This document shows positions 1,947-59,262 of a DNA stretch of 63,253 bases, piece by piece (within the stretch, counting starts at the first letter, position 1; each line of letters starts with the position of its first letter). The stretch lies in the IMG/VR virus record IMGVR_UViG_3300044981_000245, positions 1-63,253 of that record. The stretch is one strand, 5' to 3'. The notes under the pieces are model-generated. The model was not told the DNA's origin. It worked only from the letters and a program-made list of their open reading frames with translations, and ran no database searches. Source of the DNA: a virus. A program made the position numbers and the translations under genes.

Positions 1947-3250
1947 TGTCTGGAGTCACGGGCGAAATCGGGTTCAAGATCGGTGCGGCAGCTAATCAGC
2001 TAGTCCGTGTAGACCAGATCATGACTGCGACCGCGGGCGGCACCGCGCTGCAAGCACAGGGACCGGTGTTCGTTACTGGAGTCATGACGATCAGTACCGG
2101 GCTTGAGATCCTCAACACTGCCGGCACCACTACACAATTCATGCTGACGTTGCTCGCCGGCACGAATGTCGGCAAAGCCTCGGGACTGCAGGTGCGCGCG
2201 GGCAACGCGGCGGTCGACGTGCCCATCCAAGTTATCGACGTGGCCGGCACCGGCACGCTACTCATGGTGGGTGGCGATGGGCATGGCAACTTAGGCTGGA
2301 ACTACACTAGCAACCTTCCGATTCTGAAAGCAATTGCTGTAGGAGAAGTAGACGCCTTAGGAGCACTCACCGTAACCAGCTTAAATTCGTTGACCGCATA
2401 TAGTGCTTTCAGTCAAGGGGGCGCCAGTCTTTCTTCCGGCCCCGGAGGGATACCATTAACGGTATTCGCATCCGGCACAAATGTCAGCGGGGGCGGCAAC
2501 AAAGTACTTGTAGTCGCCGCAAACAACATCGTCGTGCTGGGCACCACGACAGCATACACATGGGGCACCGGCACACTCTATCCTACCATGCAAATTTCCG
2601 GCGTCGGCGCGATATTCGGTAGCGCGACCGAGGCCGTCTCCCTTGTTGGAGGCGGTGCCTATTGGAACGGCACCAACTACATCAACGGACAAGCCGGCAC
2701 CGCAGTCATAGCGTCCTTAGGCACTGGCAGTTTCACAATATCCATCTCCGGCACACAAGCAACTGCCGCCGGCACCGCGCACCCCACTGTCGTCTTCAGC
2801 ATCGGCGGCACGGTCACCTCGAACAAGATCCAAGGCTACGGCCCAACTGCCGCGGCTCTCGTGGACATGACGCCCGATACCGGTACGTTCACGGGCACCT
2901 GGGGTGGGTTCGTCACTGCACCCGTCAATACTGCTGCCTATTGGTCACGGCAGGGTAACCAGGTCATGCTGCTTATCCCATATGGGACGGCGAGCAAATC
3001 TGGCGCCGCCGGAGCGATTACGTTCGCACCGCTCCCCGCGGCTATCCAACCGGTGAAGACGATGTTCGTTGGCATTCCTAACGTACTCACAGGCACTGCA
3101 GTGCCTGGTGGCGGCCAAGTAACGGTGCAAGCCAGCAGCACATTGTCGTTCTTCCAAGGCGCAGGCGGCTCGCCCTTCAACGGCACGGCTGCCGCCTCGA
3201 TCGGCCTGAGCGGCGGGTTCACTGTCATACAATACCCGATAGGACCGTAA
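1946..3250 (+). CDS. Tail fibre protein with shared C-terminal adhesin domain
   Basis: A 434-residue, Thr/Gly/Val-rich beta protein starting at GTG that overlaps the previous stop. The C-terminal ~150 residues begin with GYGP, followed by VDMTPD, GTFT, a WSR-GNQV motif and Ile-Gln-Pro. The same ordered motifs occur in the C-terminus of the fibre at 18345-20141, so the two share a terminal module, probably the receptor-contacting or trimerisation part. Base composition in the central section (about 2290-2440) is more AT-rich than around it, suggesting a patchwork gene. It is coupled to the terminase small subunit by a one-base overlap. Confidence 0.75.
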   Translation: MSGVTGEIGFKIGAAANQLVRVDQIMTATAGGTALQAQGPVFVTGVMTISTGLEILNTAGTTTQFMLTLLAGTNVGKASGLQVRAGNAAVDVPIQVIDVAGTGTLLMVGGDGHGNLGWNYTSNLPILKAIAVGEVDALGALTVTSLNSLTAYSAFSQGGASLSSGPGGIPLTVFASGTNVSGGGNKVLVVAANNIVVLGTTTAYTWGTGTLYPTMQISGVGAIFGSATEAVSLVGGGAYWNGTNYINGQAGTAVIASLGTGSFTISISGTQATAAGTAHPTVVFSIGGTVTSNKIQGYGPTAAALVDMTPDTGTFTGTWGGFVTAPVNTAAYWSRQGNQVMLLIPYGTASKSGAAGAITFAPLPAAIQPVKTMFVGIPNVLTGTAVPGGGQVTVQASSTLSFFQGAGGSPFNGTAAASIGLSGGFTVIQYPIGP

Positions 3251-4047
3251 TGAGCGCAGTAGCCCAAACACCAAAGAATCTCCCCGACCCCGGAAGGCCT
3301 CCGACCCCTATGAAGACTATTGAGCGATGGGATACCTTCTTAGGCGACCTTGCGTCCGGCATGACGCTCGTGGACGCCATGAAGAAGTGCTGGATCTCCC
3401 GTGCGGATATCGAGACCATGACGCGCCTTAACGATGGCGGTTTGCAGTTGCAGCGCTGGACGGACGCTCGCTTGGCCGGAAAACGGTCTGCCTGGTCGGC
3501 GATACAGCTGGAGGACTTCTTTGCTCTGATTGCTTCCGGCAAGACCGTGCAGGACGCCCATATGGAAGTCAAAGGTTTTGCAGCCAACAAAGACATCTTC
3601 CATCTCCTTAATCGGGAACCGGAAATGAAGGCGCGGTATCTTGAGGCCAAGGAGGCACACATGCTGTCCTTAGGCGAGGGTCTGTTGGATATCGCCGATG
3701 ACGACAGCAAGGACACGCTCGATACCGGCGGCAAGTCGGGCACCATCCCCAACAACGCGGCCGTGGCGCGCAGTAAGCTCAAGACTGACACACGCCTGCG
3801 CGTCATGGGTCTCTATAATTCCAAGCTCTTCGGCGAGAAGAAGGACAACGTGCAAGTGAACGTACAAATCAATCACGCCGAGCACCTCGAGGCCGCCCGT
3901 GAGCGCGCGAAGACCCGCGGCGCTATCGAACCACCCAAGAGGCAGGTCGAGGTCATCGACGCCCAATTTTCCGAAAAAGCGGCAGTACCTGCCGACGACA
4001 CATCTTGGCTCGACACGGCTGACTCAACATGGAGAGAAGAAAAATGA
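3250..4047 (+). CDS. terS: Terminase small subunit, Sf6 gp1-like
   Basis: A 265-residue protein. The N-terminal half is helical and helix-turn-helix-like. The middle contains the DIADDDS block followed by a conserved Asp-Thr-Arg-Leu-Arg-Val segment and a Lys-Leu-Phe-Gly-Glu-Lys end, a pattern typical of the Sf6-type terminase small subunit family. The C-terminal tail is charged. This subunit recognises the packaging site and recruits the large subunit. The large subunit follows two genes later. The stop overlaps the next ATG in an ATGA. Confidence 0.85.
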   Translation: MSAVAQTPKNLPDPGRPPTPMKTIERWDTFLGDLASGMTLVDAMKKCWISRADIETMTRLNDGGLQLQRWTDARLAGKRSAWSAIQLEDFFALIASGKTVQDAHMEVKGFAANKDIFHLLNREPEMKARYLEAKEAHMLSLGEGLLDIADDDSKDTLDTGGKSGTIPNNAAVARSKLKTDTRLRVMGLYNSKLFGEKKDNVQVNVQINHAEHLEAARERAKTRGAIEPPKRQVEVIDAQFSEKAAVPADDTSWLDTADSTWREEK

Positions 4048-4667
4048 AAAAATATCTGGCCTCGTTAGCGATCGCATTATTGTCCGCGGGCGGTCTCGTT
4101 GTGGGTGTTGCCGTGTGGATGGCTCCGACGCCTCCCCCGACCGTGAATCGCGTGCTCATCCTGAATGATGCGGACAGCGTGGTGGCGACAAACGCCAAGC
4201 TGGATAAGCTGCCCATGTACGACACGCTTGAAGAGGCCGGCGTCGCCGGTGCGCTGCGGGCGTACCAGTGTTCGCACTACTACGAGTGTGGCGCCCCAAT
4301 TGCACAGCGGCCTGACGGCAAGTTCGTCGTAGGCCCCATGCTCTCTAGTCGGGCCGGCGACCACACGGAGATGAGCCATGCGGTGCCCAAGGGCTGGAAA
4401 CTCGTCGCAGACATTCACGACCATCCGTGCCTCGCCGACACGCACTATACCGATTTCTTCTCGTCGCAGGATCTGACGGGCGGATACGAGAGCAAAATCG
4501 TGGTCTTCATGGGCGACCAATGCACCGGTAAGGTCCACGAGTTCGACTACACCAAGGACTCCCCAAACGACACCAAGGTCGAAGAAGATACTTACCTGAC
4601 GCACGGCCGCATCATCGGGTCCTTCCCCGTGGACGGCAAGAGCGCGGAGCCGAAAGTCGGACTATGA
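4044..4667 (+). CDS. Secreted/anchored DUF4329-like (JAMM-type) protein
   Basis: A 207-residue protein starting at the ATG seven bases after a GGAGAG site, in an ATGA overlap with the terminase small subunit. Residues 1-26 form a signal peptide or membrane anchor with a Lys-Lys-Tyr start. The remainder matches the DUF4329 pattern: a helix, Cys76 and Cys82 (the latter in an ECG motif), Glu109, an HDHPC motif (His125, His127, Cys129), then Ser140-x-x-Asp143 and Cys160 in a Cys-Thr-Gly-Lys motif. Glu, HxH and SxxD are the metal-binding and catalytic set of JAMM metalloproteases, though the HxH-to-Ser spacing (12) is longer than the usual 7. A paralogue is at 55530-56051. Its position between terminase genes has no obvious packaging logic, so it may be an accessory gene. 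Function unknown; periplasmic peptidase-like activity is inference. Confidence 0.75.
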   Translation: MKKYLASLAIALLSAGGLVVGVAVWMAPTPPPTVNRVLILNDADSVVATNAKLDKLPMYDTLEEAGVAGALRAYQCSHYYECGAPIAQRPDGKFVVGPMLSSRAGDHTEMSHAVPKGWKLVADIHDHPCLADTHYTDFFSSQDLTGGYESKIVVFMGDQCTGKVHEFDYTKDSPNDTKVEEDTYLTHGRIIGSFPVDGKSAEPKVGL

Positions 4668-4900
4668 ATGTTGTAGAATTAAAAACTCATCCGATGCGCG
4701 ACCAAGAAAACATGGGCGCACTCCTTAAGGATTTGAACGACGCCTATGACCGTGGTGAAGTCCGAACTCTGCTATGGGCGTATTGCGACAAAGACGGCCA
4801 AGTCTTCTCTGGCGTTAGCGACTGCACCCGGATGGGTCAGTTCGCGTACAAGGTCGCTGTTCTGCAGGAGCGGCTCATGCGCTGGATCGCGGAGTCATGA
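4664..4900 (+). CDS. Hypothetical protein between terminase genes
   Basis: A 78-residue protein that overlaps both neighbours in ATGA junctions. It is acidic, with a conserved-looking middle (Trp-Ala-Tyr-Cys-Asp-Lys-Asp-Gly) and a C-terminal helix containing two Arg and a Trp. The family was not recognised. Translational coupling implies co-expression with the terminase subunits. Confidence 0.7.
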   Translation: MNVVELKTHPMRDQENMGALLKDLNDAYDRGEVRTLLWAYCDKDGQVFSGVSDCTRMGQFAYKVAVLQERLMRWIAES

Positions 4901-6402
4901 GCGCAGCCGCCCTTAAATCAGGCGACACGGCGCGCGCTCGCGCGTCTCGGCAGCCCGTGATGACGGACGCCGAGTTTGAGAATGCACTACTCACCGACAT
5001 GGAGCGGTTTTACGATGATCCACTCGGATTCGTCTATTATGCGTTTAACTGGGGCCACGGGGAGCTCAGTGAAAGCGACGGCCCCGATAAGTGGCAGGCC
5101 GATTTTCTCAATGACATTGCAGCCAAGCTACGAGCAGATCCTGACGCCAACGTACGCGAGGCTACCGCTTCCGGACACGGTATTGGAAAGACTACCGTTA
5201 CTGCGTGGCTATGCATCTGGGCCATGTCCACCCGAGCTCACCTCTCTGGCGTTGTCACGGCCAATACAATGTCGCAGCTTAGCACTAAGACATGGCGCGA
5301 ACTTGCACTCTGGTACAAGCGAGCAATTAACCGTCATTGGTTCAAGTGGAGTGCCACTAAGTTTTGGCACGTCAAGGAACCCGAGACCTGGTTCATCTCA
5401 GCTGAACCAAACACTGAGCACAATAGCGAAGCATTCGCCGGTCGCCACGCTAAATATAAGCTCATCATTTTTGACGAGGCTTCGGCTATTCCTGACAAGA
5501 TCTGGGAAGTGACCGAAGGCGCCATGACCGACCCGCGCTCGATTTGGGCCGTCTTTGGCAACCCGACCAAGAACACGGGGCGATTCAAGGACTGCTTCGA
5601 GCACGACAAGGCCCGCTGGGGCACACGACACATCGACAGCCGCACGGCGAAGATGACCAACAAGGCGGAACTCAATGAGTGGATCACAGCTTACGGCATC
5701 GATTCGGACTTTGTTAGAGTCCGTATCCTTGGGCTATTCCCGCGATTCGGAGCCATGCAGTTCATCTCCACTGAGTCTGTCGACAAAGCCATGCTCCTTG
5801 ATATGCCTTATGAGGCTTGGTGTCTCCTACCCGTCGTCTTTGGAGTGGACGTTGCTCGGTATGGAGACGACAAGAGCTGTATCGCAATTCGGCAAGGGCG
5901 CAAGCTTCACGAGATCCGCAAATTCCGCGAGCTAAACACCATGCAGCTGGCCGCGGAGATTGTGGCTGCCATGAAGGACTGGGGCCAAGTGGCCGCGGTA
6001 TTCGTCGACGGCGTGGGAGTGGGCGCCGGCGTGGTCGATCGCCTCCAGATGCTCGGGCACCCCGTCATCGAGGTCAACGGCGGCGAGACCGCGTTTGAAG
6101 ATACCAAATATTTTAACAAAAATTCAGAGATGTGGGCTCGGATGCGGGATTGGCTAAAAGGAGCGAAATTGCCGGATAAAGATAGCGAATTGCGTCTCGC
6201 GTTAATCGGACGCGAATATTATTTCGATGAAAAAGAAAGAGTTAGGTTGGAGCGTAAAAAAGACATGAAAAAACGGGGACTCGCCTCCCCCGACGAAGCC
6301 GACGCGCTTGCGCATACGTTTGCCGAAGAACTTGGAGATCTCATTCGGAACAGTGTTGAACCCGAGAACGAGAACTCAGTCGAGCCGGAGATGCCGTCGT
6401 GA
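4897..6402 (+). CDS. terL: Terminase large subunit
   Basis: A 501-residue packaging ATPase-nuclease. The ATPase domain has Walker A at residues 92-99 (SGHGIGKT) and Walker B LIIFDEAS at 189-196 with its catalytic Glu. The RNase H-like nuclease domain begins near residue 312 with GVDVARYGDD (Asp318), followed by a second acidic strand (VDGVGVG, Asp371) and the late acidic motif SPDEADAL. It pumps DNA into the prohead and cuts the concatemer. It overlaps the preceding gene by ATGA. The downstream HNH gene starts at a GTG overlapping this stop, an arrangement often seen for packaging-associated HNH proteins. Confidence 0.97.
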   Translation: MSAAALKSGDTARARASRQPVMTDAEFENALLTDMERFYDDPLGFVYYAFNWGHGELSESDGPDKWQADFLNDIAAKLRADPDANVREATASGHGIGKTTVTAWLCIWAMSTRAHLSGVVTANTMSQLSTKTWRELALWYKRAINRHWFKWSATKFWHVKEPETWFISAEPNTEHNSEAFAGRHAKYKLIIFDEASAIPDKIWEVTEGAMTDPRSIWAVFGNPTKNTGRFKDCFEHDKARWGTRHIDSRTAKMTNKAELNEWITAYGIDSDFVRVRILGLFPRFGAMQFISTESVDKAMLLDMPYEAWCLLPVVFGVDVARYGDDKSCIAIRQGRKLHEIRKFRELNTMQLAAEIVAAMKDWGQVAAVFVDGVGVGAGVVDRLQMLGHPVIEVNGGETAFEDTKYFNKNSEMWARMRDWLKGAKLPDKDSELRLALIGREYYFDEKERVRLERKKDMKKRGLASPDEADALAHTFAEELGDLIRNSVEPENENSVEPEMPS

Positions 6403-24870: not shown

Positions 24871-27800
24871 ATGGCAGGTAGCGGGAACTATTTTTTGGAC
24901 ACGTACGGGCCGAGCGATACCGCTGCACCCGCTGCTGCCCCACAAACCGCTCCCGCGCAAAGTGCGCCCGCACCGGCTGCCGCTCGGGCCGCCGCGCCAC
25001 CGCCGAAGCCGACTGGGAACTACTTCACGGATACCTATGGCCCCAACGATGTCGATCAGCCGACGCTAGCCAAGCCGAAGGCTTCCGCGATTCACGACAC
25101 CATAACCAATCCGGCGCTAAACGGCTTTGAGAAGGGACGGCAAATAGGCTTCATCCTGCAGAGTCCGATGTATAAAGACGAGCAGGTTGCTAGTGCTATT
25201 GCGGAAGCCCAGCAGAAAATAGAACCGCGCCCGGAATATCTCCGACAAGCCGACGAGGTTTTTTCCAATGCGCACGGATGGCTGGGAGTGCTGGACGCAT
25301 ACGTCCACAACCCAAGAGCAGTTCTTGCAAACACCATCCAAGGACTGACTCAGGGCGGCATGGTAATGGGCGCGGCTGTCGCCGGGGGCGCCGCGGGTGG
25401 CCCCGAGGCTGCCGCAGTCAGCGCAGGCGGCGCAGCCTATTTGAATACATATGGCGAAACCATTCTGAACACCTTCGAAGCGCATGGTGTTGACCTGAGC
25501 GATAAAGATGCCGTGCTCGCCGCGATGCATGATCCGGCGCTTATGGCGGCCGCAGCGGCTGCGGGGCACAAAGCCGGTGTGCCTGCGGCGATTATCAACG
25601 CGCTTAGTTTCGGTATCGCCGGCCGGGTAGCGGGACCTGTGACTCGTATAGCTGGAGGCAAAGTTGCGGGCCGTGCAGCGGGCGCGGTTGGCGAAGTCGC
25701 GGCACAGGGCACCATTGGCGCGGGCGGCGAGGCTGCCACGGAAGCATCTCGAGGCGAAGAACTCAACCCGAATGCGATCACTCAGGCGGGGCTGGGGCAG
25801 GCCGCCGCTACAGCGCCGTTCATGGCGCATGGAGTGGTTTCCGATCCCTTGGCGCACGTTGATACGCGCGTAGTTGAAGCACACGCAGACATCATGTCGC
25901 AGGCCCAAGAGACGGCCGCTGCGGCCGTCAAGGCTCAGGGTGGCGACGCGCTGGATCAGACGGTGGCCGCCACGCAGGTCAATGCCGAGGTCGGTGCGCA
26001 CCATGACGCCGCGGCGGTGCAGGGTGCCCGAGACCAAGAAGCGCAGGCCCATGCGGATGCCTTGCAGGCTCACCAGGAGCAGGAAGCCCGAGACGCGGCC
26101 TTCGCCCAAGCCGAAGCGGAGAAGGGCGCCACGCCGGCGCAAGAAGCGCTCGCCAAAGAGAACGCATTTCAGCAGGCGGATGTCGACAACCAGAAAGAAA
26201 AGGACCAAGACTTTTCTGCAGCAAAGAATCAGGTGGGCGAGCAGGCCGTCGAAGCTGCCAAGACCGGTGAGGCCGGTGCCGAGAAGGGCGGGGCGAACGA
26301 GCCCAAGCCGACTTTGGCCGAGGCGCTGCCTCCAGAGCAGCTGGCGGCCCTGCAGGGCCTCAAGGCCCGCCGGGCGGCGGAAGCCGCCCAGCCGCCCGAG
26401 GAGACGGTACAGGAGCGCATGAGGGCACAGGCCAGAGGCACTCCTGACGACTTCCAAGAGCTGCCCGCTAAAGCTCCGGAGACGGCCGTGGCGCCGCCCG
26501 AGGAGGCCGAGCCTGAAACCATAGCCCCTCCCCCGGTTAAGCCCGCAGACCTTGCCGCTCGCAGGCAGGCAGAGCTTGACGCGAAGATGGCAGCAAAGGT
26601 TCGGGGGCCGGCCCCAGAAACCCCAATCGCCTCACCCAATGAGGTGAAAGCACCCCCTAATCGCCTCGGCGCCATCCGGGCAGCTGCGGAGAAACGGGCG
26701 GCATTGTCCTCAGAGCGTGCGGAGAATCCGGTCCGCGAGCCTGAGGGCTACGTGGCCCGCAATGCGGAGACGGGGGACGAAATCAAGCGCTTCCCCACGT
26801 TCGAGGAGGCTCTAGCGCACAAGCAGGCCAACCCGGACCACGACATTACGAAGTTCAAAGCCCCTGAGAATGACTGGTTCAGCGACCTTCGTTCGCGGCT
26901 GGCTATGCCGCATGACGAGGCGAAAGAGCATCTGTCAGGCGTATCAGATGCTCAAGGTGAGCGCGCATTCCAGGTCCATGAGTCGGCCACTGCCGACACC
27001 GTACCGCCGCTTCTAGCCCAGCAGATCAAGGAGCACATGGCTAAGGGCGGCCTGCCGCCCAAAGGCGCCTACAGCGAGGGCGTGGCGCATGTCTTTGCGG
27101 GCAGCCACGAGACCGGGGACAAAGAGGACCTTTTGTCCACAACTGTGCATGAGCTTGCCCACAAAGGCCTCGAGAGCTTCTTGGGTCCCGAACTCGGCCA
27201 CACCATGGACGGCATCTACCGCGATGTAAGGGATACGGCTTGGGCCAAGCGTCTCGTAGAGCGCAGAGGCATGGACACGAGCCGGGTGGATACCCAGCGC
27301 CTGGTGGCGAACGAGTACGCCGCACACATGGCGGAGAACGTCGCCGCGGGACGCGAAGTACACGAGGAGCTACCGGTCAAGGACCGCGTGGCCGGGCATT
27401 GGCAGCGCGTGGTCGACACTGTGCGCGCCGGGCTGCGCAAGATCGGCCTCGTCAAGCACTGGAACGACAATGACATCGCAGCTCTTATCCGGCAGGCGCA
27501 GGCGCACTCAGGCGGCGACCGCGTTGGCCGCGAAGGGACAGACTATAAACAGTCTGGGCCTCTCTTCTCGCTGCAGAATGACGACGACAATATCGCGCAG
27601 AATTTTGCTCCTGACCATCCGATCGCGCAGGCACACAAGCTGGCACGCACGATGGAAGAGCAGGCCAAGTACAACCCGGGCTTCATCCACGACCCTGCCG
27701 GATACATGAAGGAGAAGTGGGACGATACGCTGGGCTCCCGCCTCGCCTTTATCGGTCTACGCAATCTACCCGACTTCCTCAACGAGCGCACCCATGGCGC

Positions 27801-30342
27801 CATGAGCGCAGTACGCGCGTTTATCCGCACTCACGATGCCATGGAAGGCCGCCGCGGGCGGCTCGCAGAGACTGGCGGCAAGCTTGCGCTCGACTGGTCC
27901 AAGTGGGCCACGGCTAACAAGCGCGAGGCCGGAAACCTCGGCGAGCTGATGCACGCCGCGACCATCGGCGGAGTTGACCCCTCACGCGAGTTCCAGCCGA
28001 AGTACTCGGACGAAGTAAAGGCGGTAGACGCGGCCAAGCAGGCGCACGAAGACAGCCGCGAGAATCTGCATCAGAAGCTGAAGCAATACTACCGCAATAA
28101 CCTCGACGATAAAGGCCGTGAGCTCTTCAACAAGGTTCGCGACTTTTACGAGGACCGGCGCAAAGACGTGCTGCAGGGCCTAGAAGCCCGCATCAATGAG
28201 TCCGGTGCCGACGGCAAGACCAAGCAGCAGCTGATGTCGACGCTGCGCCAGAAGTTCGAACAAGGCCGCGTGCAGGGACCGTACTTCCCACTCACCCGCT
28301 TTGGCGACCACTGGGCGCGGGCGATTGACTCGGAAGGCAAGACCGCCTCCTTCTCGCGCTTTGAGAGCGTCAAGCAGAAGCAGGCGTGGATGGACGAAGC
28401 CAAGAAGATGGGCTTCGATGTACAGAGCGGCAAGAAGGCCGACGCCGGCAAGAGCATGATGGAGCGGATCGATCCAGACTTCGTCAAGAAGGTCACGGAA
28501 CTCGCCAAGGACGTCGACCCCAAGCTGGCAGACGAGATCTGGCAGGAATACCTTAAGGCCATGCCTGAGATGTCGATGCGCAAACATCTCATCCACCGGC
28601 AGGGCCGGCTAGGCTATTCCGCCGACGCGCTGCGCGGCTTTGCCTACAACGCCTTCCACGGCTCGCACCAGATCGCCCGTCTCGAGTACGGCAACCGGCT
28701 CGCCGGGCACTTAGATGACATGAATCGTCAGCAGGAGGCCGCGCACAACAACCCTGACCTTACGGACACGGACAAGAATTACGCGACCGAGCTCACCAAA
28801 GAGTTCACCCGCCGCCTCGACTGGATCAACAACCCCAAGGCCGGCGCGTTTGCTTCCGCCATGACCAAGTTCGGCTTCGGCTGGTACCTGGGTTTTGCCC
28901 CCGCAACGGCGTTCCGCATCCTCTCTCAGAACCCCATGCTGGCCCAGCCCATCTTGGCTAAGTACCACGGCCAGCTTGGCGCGACGCGCGAGCTTACGCG
29001 GGCGTCTGCCCAGTTCATCCGCTCCAAAGGACAGGACGGGCTCATTGACTCCCTGCGCGGCAATGAGCGCGATGCCATGGAGCAGGCCAAGGATCAAGGC
29101 CTTTTCTCGAGCACCTGGGCGCAGACGCTTGCCTCGGGCGGTGAGGGCGCGCCGATGACCGGCAAAATGATGGCGTACAACCGCGCCGCGGCGTACCTCT
29201 TCAACGCGGCCGAGCATCACAATCGAGCCACGACATACCTTGCCGCTTACCGGTTAGCGGTAAAAAATGACATGACGCATGCGCAGGCCATGGAGCACGC
29301 GACGGATGCGACGTGGGACAGCCACTTCGATTATACCAATGCCAACCGCCCCCGCTTCATGCAGAACGACTTCGTGAAGGTCGCCGGGCTCTTCAAGCAG
29401 TACTCCCTCGGCGTCACTTATCGTCTGGCGCGTGAGTTCCGCAACATGACCCGTATGGATGGCGGTATTACCCGCGAAGGCAGGAAGCAAGCGACGGTTG
29501 CGATGGCATCACTCTTGGGCCGATCGGCGATGTTCTCGGGTGTGACGGGCTTACCGTTATACTGGGTGGCGTCCAACATGCTCAACTACGCGCTCGGCGA
29601 CAAGGATAACCCGGTCGACTCAACTGCGTTGATCCACAAGCAGCTGAACGACACGATGGGTCAGACGGCAGGTGATGCCATCATGACTGGGCCTATGGGC
29701 GCCCTAACCGGGGCATCCTTGTCGACCGGCGCCTCTTACAACGACCTCTGGTACAAGCCGCCCGGGCAGGATATGTCGGCGGTCGACCAAACCAAGGATG
29801 CGCTCGACCAGCTCGGCGGCGCCATCCCCGCCATCGGGCTCAACGCCATGCAGGGCGTAGGCCAGATCGCGCACGGCAACATTGAGCGCGGGCTTGAGCA
29901 CTTCCTGCCGCCGGCGCTTGCGGGTCCGGTCAAGGCGGCGCGCTACGCCACGCAGGGTGTGCAGAACACCAAGGGCGAGCCGATCATGAAGCCCGAGGAC
30001 ATGGCGGACCGGGACAAATACCTGCAGGCCTTTGGCTTCACGCCGCAGGACGTCGCCGATCAGTACGCAGTGAACAACGCCCGCTCGAACAACGTCAAGG
30101 AGCTCGACGCTCGGCGCGCGTGGCTCAAGAACGCATATGCGGCGGCGTTATCGAGCGGACACGATGACGACGTGACAGAGGCTGCGAATGACATCGCAGC
30201 CTTCAACGAGAAGAATCCGGAGTACGCCATTGGCGGAGACGAAGCAAGCTACATCATGAACCAGGCGAAGCAGGCTGCGACTTCCATCAATGGCATAAAC
30301 CTACCGCCGCGACTGCGCGGCAAACTTGAGGAGAAATACTAA
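24871..30342 (+). CDS. Giant internal virion/ejection protein with zincin motif
   Basis: An 1823-residue protein, the largest in the genome. The N-terminus carries two copies of a GNYFxDTYGPxD motif (residues 5-16 and 49-60). A Gly/Ala hydrophobic region (~170-280) and a long Ala/Glu/Gln coiled region (~300-620) follow. An HELAH motif at residues 760-764, followed by a helix with Asn-Glu-Tyr-Ala-Ala-His, looks like a zinc metalloprotease site. The C-terminal ~900 residues are helical and resemble the large polyvalent-protein-associated (LPD38-like) region found in phage ejection proteins. It probably travels with the DNA and acts in the host envelope or cytoplasm. A GGAGAG site precedes the ATG. 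Confidence 0.8.
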   Translation: MAGSGNYFLDTYGPSDTAAPAAAPQTAPAQSAPAPAAARAAAPPPKPTGNYFTDTYGPNDVDQPTLAKPKASAIHDTITNPALNGFEKGRQIGFILQSPMYKDEQVASAIAEAQQKIEPRPEYLRQADEVFSNAHGWLGVLDAYVHNPRAVLANTIQGLTQGGMVMGAAVAGGAAGGPEAAAVSAGGAAYLNTYGETILNTFEAHGVDLSDKDAVLAAMHDPALMAAAAAAGHKAGVPAAIINALSFGIAGRVAGPVTRIAGGKVAGRAAGAVGEVAAQGTIGAGGEAATEASRGEELNPNAITQAGLGQAAATAPFMAHGVVSDPLAHVDTRVVEAHADIMSQAQETAAAAVKAQGGDALDQTVAATQVNAEVGAHHDAAAVQGARDQEAQAHADALQAHQEQEARDAAFAQAEAEKGATPAQEALAKENAFQQADVDNQKEKDQDFSAAKNQVGEQAVEAAKTGEAGAEKGGANEPKPTLAEALPPEQLAALQGLKARRAAEAAQPPEETVQERMRAQARGTPDDFQELPAKAPETAVAPPEEAEPETIAPPPVKPADLAARRQAELDAKMAAKVRGPAPETPIASPNEVKAPPNRLGAIRAAAEKRAALSSERAENPVREPEGYVARNAETGDEIKRFPTFEEALAHKQANPDHDITKFKAPENDWFSDLRSRLAMPHDEAKEHLSGVSDAQGERAFQVHESATADTVPPLLAQQIKEHMAKGGLPPKGAYSEGVAHVFAGSHETGDKEDLLSTTVHELAHKGLESFLGPELGHTMDGIYRDVRDTAWAKRLVERRGMDTSRVDTQRLVANEYAAHMAENVAAGREVHEELPVKDRVAGHWQRVVDTVRAGLRKIGLVKHWNDNDIAALIRQAQAHSGGDRVGREGTDYKQSGPLFSLQNDDDNIAQNFAPDHPIAQAHKLARTMEEQAKYNPGFIHDPAGYMKEKWDDTLGSRLAFIGLRNLPDFLNERTHGAMSAVRAFIRTHDAMEGRRGRLAETGGKLALDWSKWATANKREAGNLGELMHAATIGGVDPSREFQPKYSDEVKAVDAAKQAHEDSRENLHQKLKQYYRNNLDDKGRELFNKVRDFYEDRRKDVLQGLEARINESGADGKTKQQLMSTLRQKFEQGRVQGPYFPLTRFGDHWARAIDSEGKTASFSRFESVKQKQAWMDEAKKMGFDVQSGKKADAGKSMMERIDPDFVKKVTELAKDVDPKLADEIWQEYLKAMPEMSMRKHLIHRQGRLGYSADALRGFAYNAFHGSHQIARLEYGNRLAGHLDDMNRQQEAAHNNPDLTDTDKNYATELTKEFTRRLDWINNPKAGAFASAMTKFGFGWYLGFAPATAFRILSQNPMLAQPILAKYHGQLGATRELTRASAQFIRSKGQDGLIDSLRGNERDAMEQAKDQGLFSSTWAQTLASGGEGAPMTGKMMAYNRAAAYLFNAAEHHNRATTYLAAYRLAVKNDMTHAQAMEHATDATWDSHFDYTNANRPRFMQNDFVKVAGLFKQYSLGVTYRLAREFRNMTRMDGGITREGRKQATVAMASLLGRSAMFSGVTGLPLYWVASNMLNYALGDKDNPVDSTALIHKQLNDTMGQTAGDAIMTGPMGALTGASLSTGASYNDLWYKPPGQDMSAVDQTKDALDQLGGAIPAIGLNAMQGVGQIAHGNIERGLEHFLPPALAGPVKAARYATQGVQNTKGEPIMKPEDMADRDKYLQAFGFTPQDVADQYAVNNARSNNVKELDARRAWLKNAYAAALSSGHDDDVTEAANDIAAFNEKNPEYAIGGDEASYIMNQAKQAATSINGINLPPRLRGKLEEKY

Positions 30343-30684: not shown

Positions 30685-31302
30685 ATGGAGTTGGCTATGG
30701 CACCTGCTATCTACCTTCTGAGACACGGCCGCACAGCGATGGACGCGTTGAAGCGCTCCGACGGCTGGGTGGATCTGCCGCTCTCGGATAAAGGGCGCAT
30801 GGGCCTTATTGAACCGCAGCAATATCTGAAGCTGGAGCCGGTGGCGAAGATATATTCGCCGCCGCTCCGGCGGACGGAGGAGACTGCCCACATTATTGCA
30901 TCCGGCATGATGCACAAGCCGGACGTGCTGACGACGCCCAAGGCCATGACCTGGAACCTAGGCGTGCTCGCCGGGGCGCACAAGGAGCAGAACCGTCCTA
31001 AAGTGAAGCGCCTGCTCGCAAACCCAGACGAAGTGCCGCTAGGCGGAGAGTCCTACAACGAGTTCAAGAAGCGGTACATGGGCTGGTTCCAGACGCGCGC
31101 GGAGCAGTCCCGCCGGGCGGGCAAACCGATCCTGCTTATCTGCTCGGGTTCCAACCTGCGCTTGGTGAGTGAGATCCTGCTCGACGACAGGGATAAGCTG
31201 AACTTGGACGAAGGCGGTTTAGCTGTGCTTCACTACGCCAAGGGTAGCTGGCACGCCGAGGTGCTCTTTGGGGATAAGGCAGAGGAGGACGAAATCTCAT
31301 GA
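30685..31302 (+). CDS. Histidine phosphatase-superfamily protein, second His replaced
   Basis: A 205-residue protein with the phosphoglycerate-mutase-like fold. The phosphohistidine motif LLRHGRT lies at residues ~11-17. A conserved Arg-Arg-Thr-Glu-Glu-Thr helix and a GGES block follow. The second catalytic His, normally in a V(T/S)HGG context, is replaced: the sequence reads ICSGSNLR. The enzyme may therefore be inactive or altered. An in-frame ATG at 30697 with a GGAG six bases upstream is an alternative start. It lies between the giant ejection protein and the endolysin, an unusual place for metabolic phosphatase activity. The substrate is unknown. Confidence 0.75.
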   Translation: MELAMAPAIYLLRHGRTAMDALKRSDGWVDLPLSDKGRMGLIEPQQYLKLEPVAKIYSPPLRRTEETAHIIASGMMHKPDVLTTPKAMTWNLGVLAGAHKEQNRPKVKRLLANPDEVPLGGESYNEFKKRYMGWFQTRAEQSRRAGKPILLICSGSNLRLVSEILLDDRDKLNLDEGGLAVLHYAKGSWHAEVLFGDKAEEDEIS

Positions 31303-31772
31303 TGCTCAACGCCAATCTGCTGCGCGGCAACATTCAGAATACGCTAACGCCACTCGGACTCTATAGCCTCGACGCCGAAGAGCTGCTCATGGCCACGGCA
31401 GCGCAGGAAAGTCTGCTTGGGCAGTACCGCACGCAGATGGGCGGCCCTGCGCTTGGGATATTTCAGATGGAGCCCTTCGATTTCAACGACATTTGGGCGA
31501 ACTACCTGCACTACAAACCGATCGCAGTGCCGATTCAAGCTTTGTTCACGGCGAACATTATCAACGTGCAGGACATCGTGAATAACGACGCCGCGGCAAT
31601 CGCCATGGCGCGCGTGCACTACCTGCGCGCTCCGGGGATGCTGCCTGCCGCGACGGACCTTGCAGGCCTGTGGGCGTACTACAAGCGCGTGTGGAATACG
31701 CCGCTGGGCGCCGCGACACAGCAGCAGTTCTATTCGAACTATCACAACCTGGTGCAGGGGCCTGCACGATGA
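31299..31772 (+). CDS. Endolysin, lysozyme/transglycosylase-like
   Basis: A 157-residue protein with an AGAGGAGG site upstream. It has a TAAQESLLG motif in which the Glu is the likely general acid, followed by GPALGIFQMEPF, as in lysozyme and soluble-transglycosylase folds. No signal peptide or SAR helix is visible, so export would need a holin. It overlaps the upstream stop and the downstream membrane protein, forming a compact lysis unit. Confidence 0.82.
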   Translation: MMLNANLLRGNIQNTLTPLGLYSLDAEELLMATAAQESLLGQYRTQMGGPALGIFQMEPFDFNDIWANYLHYKPIAVPIQALFTANIINVQDIVNNDAAAIAMARVHYLRAPGMLPAATDLAGLWAYYKRVWNTPLGAATQQQFYSNYHNLVQGPAR

Positions 31773-53804: not shown

Positions 53805-54112
53805 GTGCCACCGTCTGTTTTACCCGATGCTCTATTTGGGCAATTGCTGTGGTGTTCGTACGGGTCGATTGAATTGCACCCCGTACATCGATAGTCGTCC
53901 GTCTCGTCAGCGGGGCGCAGGGCTTCGCGGTAGCCGTCGCACGTTGGGCAGTGCCCACGCCGCATCTTTGGAGAGTGGAAGCTGATGTTACGGTGGGCGT
54001 CGTACATTCTCTGTGCTATCCCGCGCAGCCGCTCGATTTCTCGAACGAGCTCGTCAGCCTCGCATACGCAAAATTCGGGCGCCGTGTGCGACGGATGCGT
54101 GCAGTATCTCAT
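53792..54112 (-). CDS. Hypothetical protein with two Cys/His clusters
   Basis: A 106-residue protein in ATGA overlap with the Rz gene. N-terminal Cys-Thr-His-Pro-Ser-His and Cys-Val-Cys, a helix (ELVREIERLRGIAQRMYDAH), then Cys-Pro-Thr-Cys and Cys-Thr-Gly-Cys with His-His and a final Cys. Probably two zinc sites. Function unknown. Confidence 0.65.
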   Translation of the reverse strand: MRYCTHPSHTAPEFCVCEADELVREIERLRGIAQRMYDAHRNISFHSPKMRRGHCPTCDGYREALRPADETDDYRCTGCNSIDPYEHHSNCPNRASGKTDGGTCSK

Positions 54113-54576
54113 TTGCCAGTCAGTGCGTCGCGCTCGGCACGCTCTTCGGTGCAGACGGCGTTGTCGTGGATTGCGGCGGAGATAAGGCCGTTGACAGCGC
54201 TATCAACGCTTGAGGGACCTGCAGCTGCACCCGCGGGGGCGGCGGTGGCACTTGGTAGCACGGCGTTGGGACAACGATTGGCTTCGTACTCGCGCAACCT
54301 AGCAGACAGAGCGTTAGACTGAGCGATGCCAGCAGTAATTTGTACATTGAGGGCGTCCTGTGAAGCTTTGAGTTTAGCGGTGTAATCCGCGTTCTGGTCT
54401 ATGATCTGATTGGAGGCTTCTTTGAGCGCTTCGGCACTCTCCGCTTTCACGTCGGCCGCGAAGGTGAGCGCTGCCTCGTATTTGTGGTAAGTCCAGCCGC
54501 CCCACGCGAGCGCCGCCGCGATCAGCACGCCGTAGATGCAGTCCTTGAGTCCGAAGGTTGCGAGGAGGGCGCCCAT
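54109..54576 (-). CDS. Rz: Inner-membrane spanin (Rz-like)
   Basis: A 155-residue protein. One N-terminal membrane helix (about residues 11-27) is followed by a periplasmic coiled helix rich in Ala, Glu and Lys. The Rz1-like lipoprotein gene lies entirely inside it in another frame, the classical spanin arrangement. It spans the periplasm to fuse inner and outer membranes in the last step of lysis. It is about 22 kb from the endolysin and on the opposite strand. Confidence 0.85.
   Translation of the reverse strand: MGALLATFGLKDCIYGVLIAAALAWGGWTYHKYEAALTFAADVKAESAEALKEASNQIIDQNADYTAKLKASQDALNVQITAGIAQSNALSARLREYEANRCPNAVLPSATAAPAGAAAGPSSVDSAVNGLISAAIHDNAVCTEERAERDALTGK
54120..54347 (-). CDS. 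Rz1: Outer-membrane spanin lipoprotein (Rz1-like), embedded
   Basis: A 75-residue protein fully nested in the Rz gene in a different frame. Signal peptide with lipobox Leu-Leu-Gly-Cys (Cys18) and a Pro-rich mature part (VPPPPPRVQ). This is the known pattern of the outer-membrane partner of Rz. Confidence 0.85.
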   Translation of the reverse strand: MYKLLLASLSLTLCLLGCASTKPIVVPTPCYQVPPPPPRVQLQVPQALIALSTALSPPQSTTTPSAPKSVPSATH

Positions 54577-54746
54577 TACTGCACCATAGCCGAGCGGCAC
54601 CAGAGCTTATGCTTGCCTTCGTCATTGTCCGGCAGGCGGTCGATAAACGTGCGACATTCGGCGTACGTGGGATAAACACCGATGAACTCGTCCATCCCGA
54701 TGCCGGTCACCACGTAGTGAAGCAAAAGCACGTAGACGGTCGTCAT
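54576..54746 (-). CDS. Small protein upstream of spanins
   Basis: A 56-residue protein with hydrophobic N-terminus (TTVYVLLLHYVVTG) and a mixed end with three Cys/Trp. The stop overlaps the Rz ATG and the start overlaps the upstream stop (ATGA). Probably real because of double coupling; function unknown. Confidence 0.6.
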   Translation of the reverse strand: MTTVYVLLLHYVVTGIGMDEFIGVYPTYAECRTFIDRLPDNDEGKHKLWCRSAMVQ

Positions 54747-54976
54747 GGACACAGCTCCAAAAATCCGTAGCGGTTGTTGACGTAGATCGCAGTGGGGCAG
54801 CCGGAGTCAAACTGTTTTAAGTTATCTTGGCTCCATGACTCGCTTGAGATATGCGATGCCTCGTTCAAGCCCTGGTAACAGTTGTGACAGTGCGAGCAGC
54901 TGTTGGCGAGCATCAAAATGATGACGCCGACTGCCATGAGTGCAAGACCTATGAACCAGCGAAAGGGTGGATTCAC
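54743..54976 (-). CDS. Membrane-anchored Cys-rich small protein
   Basis: A 77-residue protein starting at GTG eight bases after a GGAGG site. One membrane helix (about residues 7-24) ends in Ser-Cys-Ser-His-Cys-His-Asn-Cys, followed by an exported-looking segment with two more Cys. The Cys pattern after the helix suggests metal or disulfide bonding in the periplasm. Unknown role. Confidence 0.65.
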   Translation of the reverse strand: MNPPFRWFIGLALMAVGVIILMLANSCSHCHNCYQGLNEASHISSESWSQDNLKQFDSGCPTAIYVNNRYGFLELCP

Positions 54977-55060: not shown

Positions 55061-55273
55061 TCAAGCCAACCGGTCCGCATCCTCGTTATACGCCACGATT
55101 GCGGCCTTTGCAAACTCTTGCAAAAGGCGCTGAATCTCGGTCTCAAGCCTGGGCTTGGCGCTCGGGCGGTTCCACCCCTTGGGCACGTACCGCTTCTGCG
55201 TGCGCGGCTTGGGTGGGCCGACAAACGCGCGGTATTGCTGCCGTACCGCAACGGTGCCTGCGCGCCTCACCAC
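55061..55273 (-). CDS. Small basic protein
   Basis: A 70-residue Arg/Lys-rich protein, GTG start overlapping the upstream stop. The C-terminal half is a helix (EIQRLLQEFAKAAIVAYNEDADRLA). No membrane segment. Unknown function. Other frames over the same bases lack ribosome sites. Confidence 0.55.
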   Translation of the reverse strand: MVRRAGTVAVRQQYRAFVGPPKPRTQKRYVPKGWNRPSAKPRLETEIQRLLQEFAKAAIVAYNEDADRLA

Positions 55274-55533
55274 CTGCCCTTCCGTGCACAGATAAAGCCT
55301 ATGACCGCTAGCACACCGACCACGCCGTACGCCACATGGTTCTGGTGGTCAACGATGGTGTTGCACTGCGCCTCGGTGTGCGTCTGCAGGCACGTCTCGC
55401 TGAACGTAGGCAGCGTGTCGGCGTGCGTCGGCGGCGTGTCATCCTCAGGATACGGCACGGGGCTGCCCGGGTGCCCTTGTTTAAATCCCGCCGGATTGAG
55501 AATGCTCATAGGACTGGATATGCCTGTGCTCAT
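55267..55533 (-). CDS. Small tail-anchored membrane protein
   Basis: An 88-residue protein. A Pro/Thr-rich soluble part (residues 1-60) with two Cys is followed by one C-terminal membrane helix (YGVVGVLAVIGFICA) and a basic end. ATGA overlap with the DUF4329-like gene upstream, so the two are co-translated. Function unknown. Confidence 0.65.
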   Translation of the reverse strand: MSTGISSPMSILNPAGFKQGHPGSPVPYPEDDTPPTHADTLPTFSETCLQTHTEAQCNTIVDHQNHVAYGVVGVLAVIGFICARKGRW

Positions 55534-56051
55534 TTGATGAACCCCGTGATGTGTCCAAGTGGTAGCTCAAGCTCGCGTCCGTTTGTGAAGTGCACAACCT
55601 CAACCTCGCGTGGACGCTCGAGTGGGTCAAAGCGGTGGATGCGCCCCGTACACTCGTCAGCCATGTAGCCGATGATGTGAAAGCCCTCGTTGACCAATGC
55701 GTCCGCCGGCGAGAAATACTCAGCCAACCGGTGGTTGCGTGGGTCACAGATATGGACGTGCCGATCGGCCACCACCTTAAGCCCAAAGGGCGGCTTGATG
55801 GTCCATAGCTCCAGCACGGTTACACCGAAGGGCTTGTTGTCCGTGGCTGGGGGCGTATAGGTGTAGAGCTGTGATATGTCATCCTGATAGATGACACCGC
55901 CGCACTCGCGCACGCCGTTGCTGCAACGCGCGTCGGCGATCAGCGCTGCACGTGCCGCTGAGTCCATATCACTGAAGAGTTCGGTACTGCGAGCTTTGTG
56001 GGCCACGCTGCACGCGAACACGATCAGTGCGATTGCCATTACTACAGGCAT
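55530..56051 (-). CDS. Secreted DUF4329-like (JAMM-type) protein, paralogue of 4044-4667
   Basis: A 173-residue protein starting at the ATG ten bases inside the end of the upstream gene. Residues 1-22 are a signal peptide. The DUF4329 core includes an AARAALIADARC helix, Cys43, ECGGVIY (Cys50), Glu81, His98-x-His100, Cys102, Ser114-x-x-Asp117 and Cys134 in an ECTGRIHRFD segment. These positions match the plus-strand paralogue one for one, including four Cys. Glu, HxH and SxxD suggest a JAMM-type metal site. It is coupled by ATGA to a tail-anchored membrane protein. Periplasmic action is inferred. Confidence 0.78.
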   Translation of the reverse strand: MPVVMAIALIVFACSVAHKARSTELFSDMDSAARAALIADARCSNGVRECGGVIYQDDISQLYTYTPPATDNKPFGVTVLELWTIKPPFGLKVVADRHVHICDPRNHRLAEYFSPADALVNEGFHIIGYMADECTGRIHRFDPLERPREVEVVHFTNGRELELPLGHITGFIK

Positions 56052-56334: not shown

Positions 56335-57069
56335 TTAGTAGTCCTTTGCTTCCTGCTCGGTGATGAAGAAGTGAATGCCGTGTGAGCACTCGACGCGCGG
56401 ATCTGGGTCGTACTTGTCGGGATAGATCCAACCGGGGGCGTACGCAAAACATTTGTGCCTTGCGTCGCCCGTGCCGGAGACCACCAAGGCGTACTCTGCA
56501 CGGCACTTGCGCGAACCGTGGGCGTTGACACGCTTAGCACTCGCGGGAATGCGCAGCACCGCAATGCTGCCATCCGCCAGTTTCTTATACCCCACTATGT
56601 CCCCCTCAGGCAGGATACATTGCTGTTCCAGCCCTTTTGTGTCTGTAAGGTTGGCCTCGCACAGGTTGGCCCCGCACAGGTCGGCCCCGCGCAGGTGGGC
56701 CTCGCTCAGGTTGGCCTCGCTCAGGTGGGCCCCGCGCAGGTTGGCCCCGCGCAGGTCGGCCTCGCGCAGGTTGGCCCTGTGCAGGTTGGCCTCGCACAGG
56801 TCGGCCCCGCGCAGGTTGGCCCCGCTCAGGTTGGCCTCGCTCAGGTTGGCCTCGCTCAGGTTGGCCCTGCTCAGGTTGGCCCCGCACAGGTCGGCCCTGC
56901 TCAGGTTGGCCCCGCACAGGTCGGCCCCGCGCAGGTGGGCCTCGCACAGGTCGGCCCCGCGCAGGTCGGCCCCGCGCAGGTCGGCCCCGCTCAGGTCGGC
57001 CTCGCTCAGGTTGGCGAACGGTTTTAATTCAATCTCTCGCTGCGTGCCGTCGATGAATTTAATCAGCAT
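56335..57069 (-). CDS. Large pentapeptide-repeat protein with DUF5758-like tail
   Basis: A 244-residue protein with an AGGAG site nine bases upstream. After a short beta start (residues 1-18) there are 25 uninterrupted A(D/N/H)Lxx units (residues 19-143), predicting a right-handed square beta helix of about six turns. The C-terminal ~100 residues match the DUF5758 pattern: GYKK, LRIPASAKR, RKCRAEYALV and a final GIHFFIT with His/Phe. Some pentapeptide proteins mimic DNA and block gyrase; that role is not shown here. Long plus-strand frames over the repeat are shadows of its 15-bp periodicity. Confidence 0.88.
   Translation of the reverse strand: MLIKFIDGTQREIELKPFANLSEADLSGADLRGADLRGADLCEAHLRGADLCGANLSRADLCGANLSRANLSEANLSEANLSGANLRGADLCEANLHRANLREADLRGANLRGAHLSEANLSEAHLRGADLCGANLCEANLTDTKGLEQQCILPEGDIVGYKKLADGSIAVLRIPASAKRVNAHGSRKCRAEYALVVSGTGDARHKCFAYAPGWIYPDKYDPDPRVECSHGIHFFITEQEAKDY
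56641..57015 (-). repeat. 25 tandem 15-bp repeats encoding pentapeptides
   Basis: About 375 bp made of 15-bp units that encode the pentapeptides. On the plus strand the units read close to CTCAGGTTGGCCTCG or CGCAGGTCGGCCCCG. High DNA identity between units suggests recent expansion, and the unit number may vary between isolates. Confidence 0.85.
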
Positions 57070-58005: not shown

Positions 58006-58100
58006 CGACGCCCCGGCTCGCGAAAATAAGTCGGGTGCTGCTCTTTAGGCCAGTAATCGCGCCCAAGCAATTGATTAATTAAACGAGTGAAGGCTTTCAT
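58002..58100 (-). CDS. Tiny basic protein after the kelch gene
   Basis: A 32-residue protein (MKAFTRLINQLLGRD start) in ATGA overlap with the kelch gene stop and with the next tiny ORF. Contains Trp, His and Tyr; no motif. Function unknown. Confidence 0.45.
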   Translation of the reverse strand: MKAFTRLINQLLGRDYWPKEQHPTYFREPGRR

Positions 58101-59179
58101 GGTGTCTCCGTTAATTGCCAAATGTCGTTTACTTCAATACCTGCGTCCGTCGTGCCGTCAGTGAACCAGAGGGCATTATTGAGCGCAAAGGCGCTGGCGG
58201 CATGGCGTGCCAGCCACGGCGTGCTAGGGAGCTGCTGCCATGTCTCGCCGTCGGCGCTGTGCCAGACTTCATTTGAATAGCCGCCACCGTCGGCGCCCAT
58301 GCCAGCGAGAACCCACAATTGGTTACGATACACCAGCACATTGTGGTACCGCTTGCCAGACCACGCAGGGACAGCGTGCTGCGTCCACGTGATACCGTCG
58401 GCGGTAGACCAAACGTTGTTTGTGGCGACTCCTGCGGTGCCCAGGGAGTCATCTCCATACTGCCCGCCACCCACCACCCACAATTCGCCATTAAAGACCA
58501 CGCTGCCGCAGATCATGCCGAGGGCGGAGGGCATGTTGCCTATTTTGCTCCAATGCGTGCCGTCCGCGGACCGCCACACGTCCGAGTAATAGGTCGGCGT
58601 TGTGGGGTAGGGCACGGGTGCAGGTGTAATCGACTCGGGGAGCTGCTGGCCGCCCATGACGTACACAGCGCCATTGAAAGCAACAGCGTAATGCAACACG
58701 CGGTCACCCCACGGTAGGTCGCTGGCCTCTTGCGTCCAATTGATGCCGTCGGGCGAGCTCCAGGCATCGTGCATGTAATGCCCGTGATTAGAGTCACCAC
58801 CGAACACCCAAAGCTTGCCGTTGAAGGCGACCCATCCCGCCATATGGCGGCCCGTCCAAGGCGCAACCGTTAGCAGCGTCCAATTAACGCCGTCAGTGCT
58901 GCGCCACACCTCACTAGTAGTGCAGCACCCCCAATCGCCAGTCTCAGGAAAGTTCGGTGTGCTCTCAGCCTCATTGACGGTACGCCATCCGCCTAGCATA
59001 TAGGCAGCGCCATTGAGCACGACAATGCCCGCGCCATCACGGCCCGCGTATGCAGCGTGATCCGTTGCAAGTGTCCAAGTGTAGGATGGTGGCGTCGGCG
59101 GTGCTGACGGCGCGCTACTGCTACCGCCACCGCACGCACACAACGCAAGCGCTACTGCTGTCGGGATTAGTTGGCGCAC
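58097..59179 (-). CDS. Kelch-type beta-propeller lipoprotein
   Basis: A 360-residue protein starting at GTG nine bases after GAGGAG. The signal peptide ends in lipobox Leu-Cys-Ala-Cys (Cys16) followed by GGGSSS, with no Asp at +2, so outer-membrane sorting is expected. The mature part has kelch/galactose-oxidase-type blades: five (S/T)xDGxxW motifs, each after a VW(R/S) strand, and LWVFGG or YVMGG turns, probably a six-bladed propeller. A phage-made surface lipoprotein could block receptors or change the cell surface; this is inference. It ends an operon of tiny membrane proteins. Confidence 0.82.
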   Translation of the reverse strand: MRQLIPTAVALALCACGGGSSSAPSAPPTPPSYTWTLATDHAAYAGRDGAGIVVLNGAAYMLGGWRTVNEAESTPNFPETGDWGCCTTSEVWRSTDGVNWTLLTVAPWTGRHMAGWVAFNGKLWVFGGDSNHGHYMHDAWSSPDGINWTQEASDLPWGDRVLHYAVAFNGAVYVMGGQQLPESITPAPVPYPTTPTYYSDVWRSADGTHWSKIGNMPSALGMICGSVVFNGELWVVGGGQYGDDSLGTAGVATNNVWSTADGITWTQHAVPAWSGKRYHNVLVYRNQLWVLAGMGADGGGYSNEVWHSADGETWQQLPSTPWLARHAASAFALNNALWFTDGTTDAGIEVNDIWQLTETP

Positions 59180-59262
59180 TAGCAACGCTCCTCGCGATAC
59201 CAAAGCACCAACGTCAGCGCGGCAACGCCGACCCATATCAGCAAGTCAATTAGGAAAATCAC
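59179..59262 (-). CDS. Tiny membrane peptide upstream of kelch lipoprotein
   Basis: A 27-residue single membrane helix ending in Tyr-Arg-Glu-Glu-Arg-Cys. AGGAG lies seven bases before the GTG, which overlaps the upstream stop; its TAG shares a base with the kelch GTG. Translational coupling to the kelch gene is likely. Confidence 0.5.
   Translation of the reverse strand: MIFLIDLLIWVGVAALTLVLWYREERC

What the first reader, a model, noticed from the sequence alone, without database searches (positions are those of the whole stretch)
55530..56051. Second DUF4329/JAMM-like paralogue in the early operon
It matches the 4044-4667 protein position by position (Cys43/50/102/134, Glu81, His98/100, Ser114, Asp117). 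One genome thus carries two exported paralogues expressed from opposite strands, probably at different times. The early copy is coupled to a tail-anchored membrane protein (55267-55533), which could be a partner or inhibitor. This two-timepoint pair may be an undescribed envelope-directed system.
Basis: partly seen in the sequence, partly recalled or inferred. Interest (0 to 1): 0.78.

Follow-up and report, generated by a model that had tools for sequence, protein, structure and literature searches.

The report
Second exported JAMM-type phage enzyme
This phage carries two distantly related genes for a probably exported zinc-hydrolase-like protein; the pairing is rare and not a conserved two-part system, but the protein family is repeatedly linked in phages to a small, apparently undescribed exported protein module, which suggests that it acts on the bacterial envelope.

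Summary
The ORF at 55530-56051(-), "B", is homologous to the ORF at 4044-4667(+), "A". A profile built without either finds A at 1e-58 and B at 5e-30; the next window ORF scores 0.46. Both model as JAMM folds, and B's Foldseek hits are JAMM proteins. One residue is wrong: B's JAMM glutamate is Glu49; Glu81 is the number in A. E/HxH/S/D are intact in all complete members (29-30) of the phage family. Pfam places the family with DUF4329 (Tox-JAB-2), although B alone hits no model.

A is an optional insert between TerS and TerL in related phages. B was found in no relative, and A plus B is not a conserved pair: of about 45 contigs, one other carries two copies, both on one strand. B is not a recent duplicate. 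Its operon contains the Rz/Rz1 spanins, so "early" is unproven. The neighbouring tail-anchored protein has no detectable homologue. A better-supported partner is a small exported protein at 54743-54976, whose ~30-residue "GCP" module is fused to DUF4329 in two phages, adjacent in a third and fused to the Rz1 spanin in a fourth.

Best reading: an exported JAMM hydrolase, an accessory gene acting on the host envelope; substrate unknown.

The parts
55530..56051 (-). B: DUF4329/Tox-JAB-2-like JAMM protein, 173 aa; Glu49 (55905-55907), His98 (55758-55760), His100 (55752-55754), Ser114 (55710-55712), Asp117 (55701-55703); Cys43/Cys50 and Cys102/Cys134
4044..4667 (+). A: homologous DUF4329 protein, 207 aa, N-terminal signal/anchor, between TerS and TerL
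55267..55533 (-). C: 88-aa ORF with one C-terminal hydrophobic segment, ATGA overlap with B; no homologue found
54743..54976 (-). membrane-anchored GCP mini-domain protein (SWSQDNLKQFDSGCPTAIYV...LELC at 54749-54847)
56335..57069 (-). pentapeptide-repeat protein with DUF5758 C-terminus, upstream of B; same order penta-DUF4329-GCP in L115
54109..54600 (-). Rz-like inner-membrane spanin
   Evidence: phrog_1152, E 2.4e-4; 41% to G005
54120..54347 (-). Rz1-like outer-membrane spanin lipoprotein, out of frame inside Rz; in G005 its homologue carries a C-terminal GCP domain
3250..4047 (+). terminase small subunit (Sf6-type)
4897..6402 (+). terminase large subunit, used to fetch relatives

Best explanation
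B is an exported, metal-dependent JAMM-fold hydrolase of the Tox-JAB-2/DUF4329 type, carried as an accessory (moron-like) gene in a run of small envelope-protein genes that ends in the Rz/Rz1 spanins. After Sec export (inferred) its disulfide-stapled domain would sit in the periplasm, perhaps held at a membrane, and use Glu49 as base and His98/His100/Asp117 as metal ligands to cleave an amide or isopeptide bond in a host envelope component, loosening or altering the envelope during infection or lysis. A is a divergent homologue at another optional insertion site with the same catalytic centre; the two need not work together. Shown here: homology, fold, intact catalytic motif, paired cysteines, gene context. 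Inferred: export of B, metal binding, substrate, timing.
For: Fold: Foldseek hits of the B model are JAMM proteins, led by P. furiosus JAMM1 (probability 1.00, E 3e-3, TM about 0.5), and viral JAB proteins including tail JAB/NlpC-P60 proteins (best E 1.8e-5); the A model's best hits also include JAMM/MPN proteins, with weak E-values. Family: 18 of 21 members hit PF14220, two over its cut-off. Motif: E 29/29, HxH, S and D 30/30 in a family with about 25% mean column identity. Cysteines come and go as pairs: 11 both / 18 neither for Cys43/Cys50, 28 both / 2 neither for Cys102/Cys134. Most members with a complete N-terminus have a hydrophobic signal/anchor, some with lipobox-like sites (G040 LVAGC; L071 LLFGC). 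Link to envelope proteins: GCP mini-domain fused to DUF4329 (L071, L084), next to it (L115), fused to Rz1 (G005) and near B in the window.
Against: No substrate evidence. B's signal sequence is atypical. Stand-alone GCP genes in other phages are not in lysis cassettes. One member, L115, lacks both an N-terminal signal and the cysteine pairs, so at least some relatives may act in the cytoplasm. Zhang et al. 2012 (PMC3482391) argued that toxin JABs may be nucleases. B alone reaches no Pfam, PHROG or NCBIfam model.
Confidence: 0.4

Rival explanations
1. Phage-borne Tox-JAB-2 toxin or effector with nuclease activity, as proposed for the toxin JAB clades, used against competitors or incoming DNA.
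For: Zhang et al. 2012 (PMC3482391) equate Tox-JAB-2 with DUF4329, note secreted phage versions and propose nuclease function; a Salmonella survey lists Rhs-DUF4329 as RNase by prediction only (PMC10469887).
Against: No experimental nuclease data found in the held papers; no immunity gene of the named Imm-NTF2-2 type recognised beside B; phage members carry their own signals and no delivery module.
Confidence: 0.2
2. Superinfection exclusion: B and neighbouring envelope proteins alter the surface or periplasm of the infected cell so that further phages cannot inject.
For: B lies in a run of small membrane or exported proteins, with a kelch lipoprotein gene upstream at 58097-59236; accessory, mosaic distribution is typical of such genes.
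Against: No homologue of a known exclusion protein found; the catalytic motif is strictly conserved, whereas many known exclusion proteins are binding proteins (general knowledge).
Confidence: 0.2
3. One reading: A and B form a conserved two-timepoint envelope system, with the tail-anchored protein C as partner or inhibitor.
For: Two homologues on opposite strands in a complete genome (127-bp terminal repeat).
Against: Relatives have A without B; only one other record of about 45 has two copies, on one strand; C has no homologue.
Confidence: 0.06
4. Counter-defence deconjugase that removes ubiquitin-like modifiers placed by host defence (Bil, CBASS) in the cytoplasm.
For: JAMM enzymes classically cleave ubiquitin-like conjugates (general knowledge); the L115 member lacks a signal.
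Against: Export signals and cysteine pairs point to the periplasm; no PADLOC match.
Confidence: 0.07

Closest known systems
Tox-JAB-2 / DUF4329 (Pfam PF14220)
   Same: E, HxH, S, D motif; JAMM fold; phage and secreted versions already noted by Zhang et al. 2012 (PMC3482391)
   Different: stand-alone exported phage protein, not the C-terminus of an Rhs or T6SS effector; paired cysteines; B itself is below detection by PF14220
Prok-JAB (PF14464) and archaeal JAMM1 (PDB 5ld9)
   Same: fold and catalytic residues
   Different: those are cytoplasmic and act on ubiquitin-like proteins; B is probably exported; about 15% identity in the structural alignment
Phage tail JAB + NlpC/P60 proteins (lambda K type)
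   Same: JAMM fold in a phage protein linked to the envelope; structural hits
   Different: those are tail components without signal peptides, fused to an NlpC/P60 domain; B has neither (general knowledge of lambda K)

Membership tests
JAMM/MPN+ metallohydrolase fold | Glu, HxH, S-x-x-D motif | tested here: met
   Glu49, His98, His100, Ser114, Asp117 of B; conserved in every complete member
JAMM/MPN+ metallohydrolase fold | JAMM fold | tested here: met
   Foldseek of the B model (pLDDT 75): JAMM proteins fill the top PDB ranks, best E 3e-3; viral JAB proteins
JAMM/MPN+ metallohydrolase fold | metal binding and hydrolysis | not testable with these tools
   needs purified protein
DUF4329 / Tox-JAB-2 (PF14220) | profile match over the curated cut-off | tested here: inconclusive
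   B: no match; A: 25.4 bits vs 28.6 cut-off; two homologues over the cut-off; B joins them at E 5e-30 with a family profile
DUF4329 / Tox-JAB-2 as polymorphic toxin | C-terminal toxin domain of an Rhs, T6SS or T7SS polymorphic toxin with an immunity gene | tested here: not met
   stand-alone 173-aa ORF; no delivery module; no immunity family matched beside it
Exported (periplasmic) phage protein | signal peptide or anchor | tested here: inconclusive
   hydrophobic N-terminus, 19-residue mean 1.92, but no positive N-region; family members have clear signals
Conserved A+B two-copy system | both copies kept together in related phages | tested here: not met

The most novel reading that the evidence does not exclude
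The GCP mini-domain is a previously undescribed outer-membrane or periplasmic targeting module that phages attach interchangeably to an exported JAMM hydrolase and to the Rz1 spanin, so that B and the GCP protein form an envelope-opening enzyme system placed beside the spanins.
Probability: 0.2. Interest if true: 0.65.

Novelty: new variant of a known kind. Interest (0 to 1): 0.42.

Why it matters
DUF4329 is a domain of unknown function found in T6SS/Rhs effectors and in phages, with no activity shown in the papers I could search. A small, strictly conserved phage family with probable disulfides offers a tractable way to find what it cleaves. The repeated link to one mini-domain, which is also fused to a spanin, would tie an enzyme class usually seen in ubiquitin biology to the bacterial envelope.

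Tried and rejected
Phage GenBank (INPHARED) tblastn with A, B, C, the GCP protein and two central family members: no match. Single-protein scans of IMG/VR with A, B or C found nothing; relatives were reached through TerL and family alignments. Genome contigs gave one MAG contig (L090). Tree: B sits on a long branch and its origin is unresolved; sister to A not rejected (p-AU 0.13), nor membership of the Cys43/Cys50 clade (p 0.38). Solved-structure sequence search: nothing. PADLOC: nothing. Promoter scan uninformative: 1 found, 3.8 expected by chance. A general lysis role of GCP was considered and not supported by the context of stand-alone copies. A first motif script matched a wrong glutamate and cysteines and was replaced. 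Xanthomonas phage OP1, named by Zhang et al., was not in the collection under the accession tried.

Full report
What is there. The window is a complete circular phage record (127-bp terminal repeat). Its TerL resembles those of epsilon15-like and other podophages at about 40-48% identity. The + strand carries packaging and structural genes. The - strand carries DNA polymerase, primase-helicase and recombination genes, many small ORFs and the Rz/Rz1 spanins. B (55530-56051, -) has a good ribosome-binding site.

Homology. A and B align with score 117 against shuffles of 29.4 +/- 4.3. A profile from the other 28 family members finds A at 1.2e-58 and B at 5.4e-30 among 932 window ORFs; the third ORF has E 0.46.

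Identity. A hits DUF4329 just under the cut-off; 18 of 21 family members hit it, two over the cut-off in the genome search. B alone hits no model but its predicted structure (pLDDT 75) matches JAMM proteins in the PDB, PfJAMM1 first, and viral JAB proteins. The A model (pLDDT 78) also finds JAMM/MPN proteins among its best hits, with weak E-values. Zhang et al. 2012 (PMC3482391) named this clade Tox-JAB-2, remarked that phage versions are secreted and suggested that toxin JABs may be nucleases. So a secreted phage DUF4329 protein is not new in itself.

Family features. Thirty distinct members were collected, nearly all from IMG/VR. Glu is intact in 29/29, both His, Ser and Asp in 30/30. Cys43/Cys50 occur together (11) or are both absent (18); Cys102/Cys134 occur together (28) or are both absent (2). 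Most members with a complete N-terminus have a signal or anchor, several with lipobox-like sites. Together this supports, but does not prove, an oxidised, exported enzyme. B's own signal is atypical.

Distribution. A lies between TerS and TerL in 10 of the TerL relatives fetched plus L059, whereas 9 records with both TerS and TerL lack it and have a shorter spacing. It is therefore an optional insert. No relative has B. Among about 45 records examined only G041 has two copies, 4 kb apart on one strand. B's closest family identity is about 33%, no higher to A than to A's homologues; it sits on a long branch and its origin, old duplication or transfer from another phage, is unresolved. It shares the Cys43/Cys50 pair otherwise confined to the A-type group.

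Neighbourhood. B lies in a compact run: pentapeptide/DUF5758 protein, a 120-codon ORF, B, C, a 70-aa ORF, GCP protein, a 58-aa ORF, Rz/Rz1. C has a C-terminal hydrophobic segment and no detectable homologue. A has the same ATGA overlap with a different, cytoplasmic-type ORF at 4664-4900, so that overlap is not specific evidence of partnership.

The GCP mini-domain. The ORF 54743-54976 ends in SWSQDNLKQFDSGCPTAIYV...LELC. This ~30-residue motif is found, clearly separated from background, in other phages. It is fused N-terminally to DUF4329 in L071 and L084, encoded next to DUF4329 in L115, and fused to the C-terminus of Rz1 in G005/L116/L117. In L115 the order pentapeptide-DUF4329-GCP on one strand repeats the window's order. 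Stand-alone GCP proteins elsewhere are small exported proteins in varied places, not lysis cassettes. I found no Pfam, PHROG or NCBIfam match for it; I did not search the literature for it specifically.

Mechanism. Most likely B is an exported JAMM hydrolase acting on an amide or isopeptide bond of the host envelope, as an accessory to infection or lysis. Fold, motif, cysteine pairing and context are shown here; export of B, metal, substrate and timing are inferred. Rivals are a nuclease-type toxin, superinfection exclusion and counter-defence. The proposed conserved two-timepoint system is not supported.

Noticed in passing
54743-54976 (-); L040:4110-4559; L071:3429-4145; L084:7698-8441; L115:5905-6099: A ~30-residue 'GCP' mini-domain (SWDQxNLKxxDxGCPTAIYVAPxGxLxQC) in exported phage proteins, fused in different phages to DUF4329 and to the Rz1 spanin; no family model matched it.
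   Followed up: partly
58097-59236 (-); L040:4924-6219 (-): Kelch-repeat lipoprotein in the window and a lipoprotein with repeated, beta-helix-like sequence (by eye) in relative G005 have similar N-terminal lipoprotein signals (LIPxAVxLALxACGGG) but different bodies, as if the ectodomain had been swapped.
   Followed up: no
L069:7731-8489; L064:4783-5595: Another small motif (GLYSxLxCxTQPGxxPWYVxxxxHRFFMGCRN) is fused to DUF4329, N-terminal in one phage and C-terminal in another.
   Followed up: no
31299-31772 (+) and 54109-54600 (-): A protein of phrog_3108 (unknown function), possibly a lysozyme-like enzyme by eye, lies at the end of the late strand while the spanins lie on the opposite strand; in relative G011 a lysozyme-like ORF, a small membrane ORF, Rz and Rz1 are together on one strand.
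   Followed up: partly
56335-57069 (-): Pentapeptide-repeat protein with DUF5758 C-terminus, shared by several phages of the set, with a long repetitive antisense ORF that is an artefact of the repeat.
   Followed up: partly
24871-30342 (+): 1823-aa protein matching DarB-like antirestriction profiles (phrog_10089, E 9e-133).
   Followed up: no
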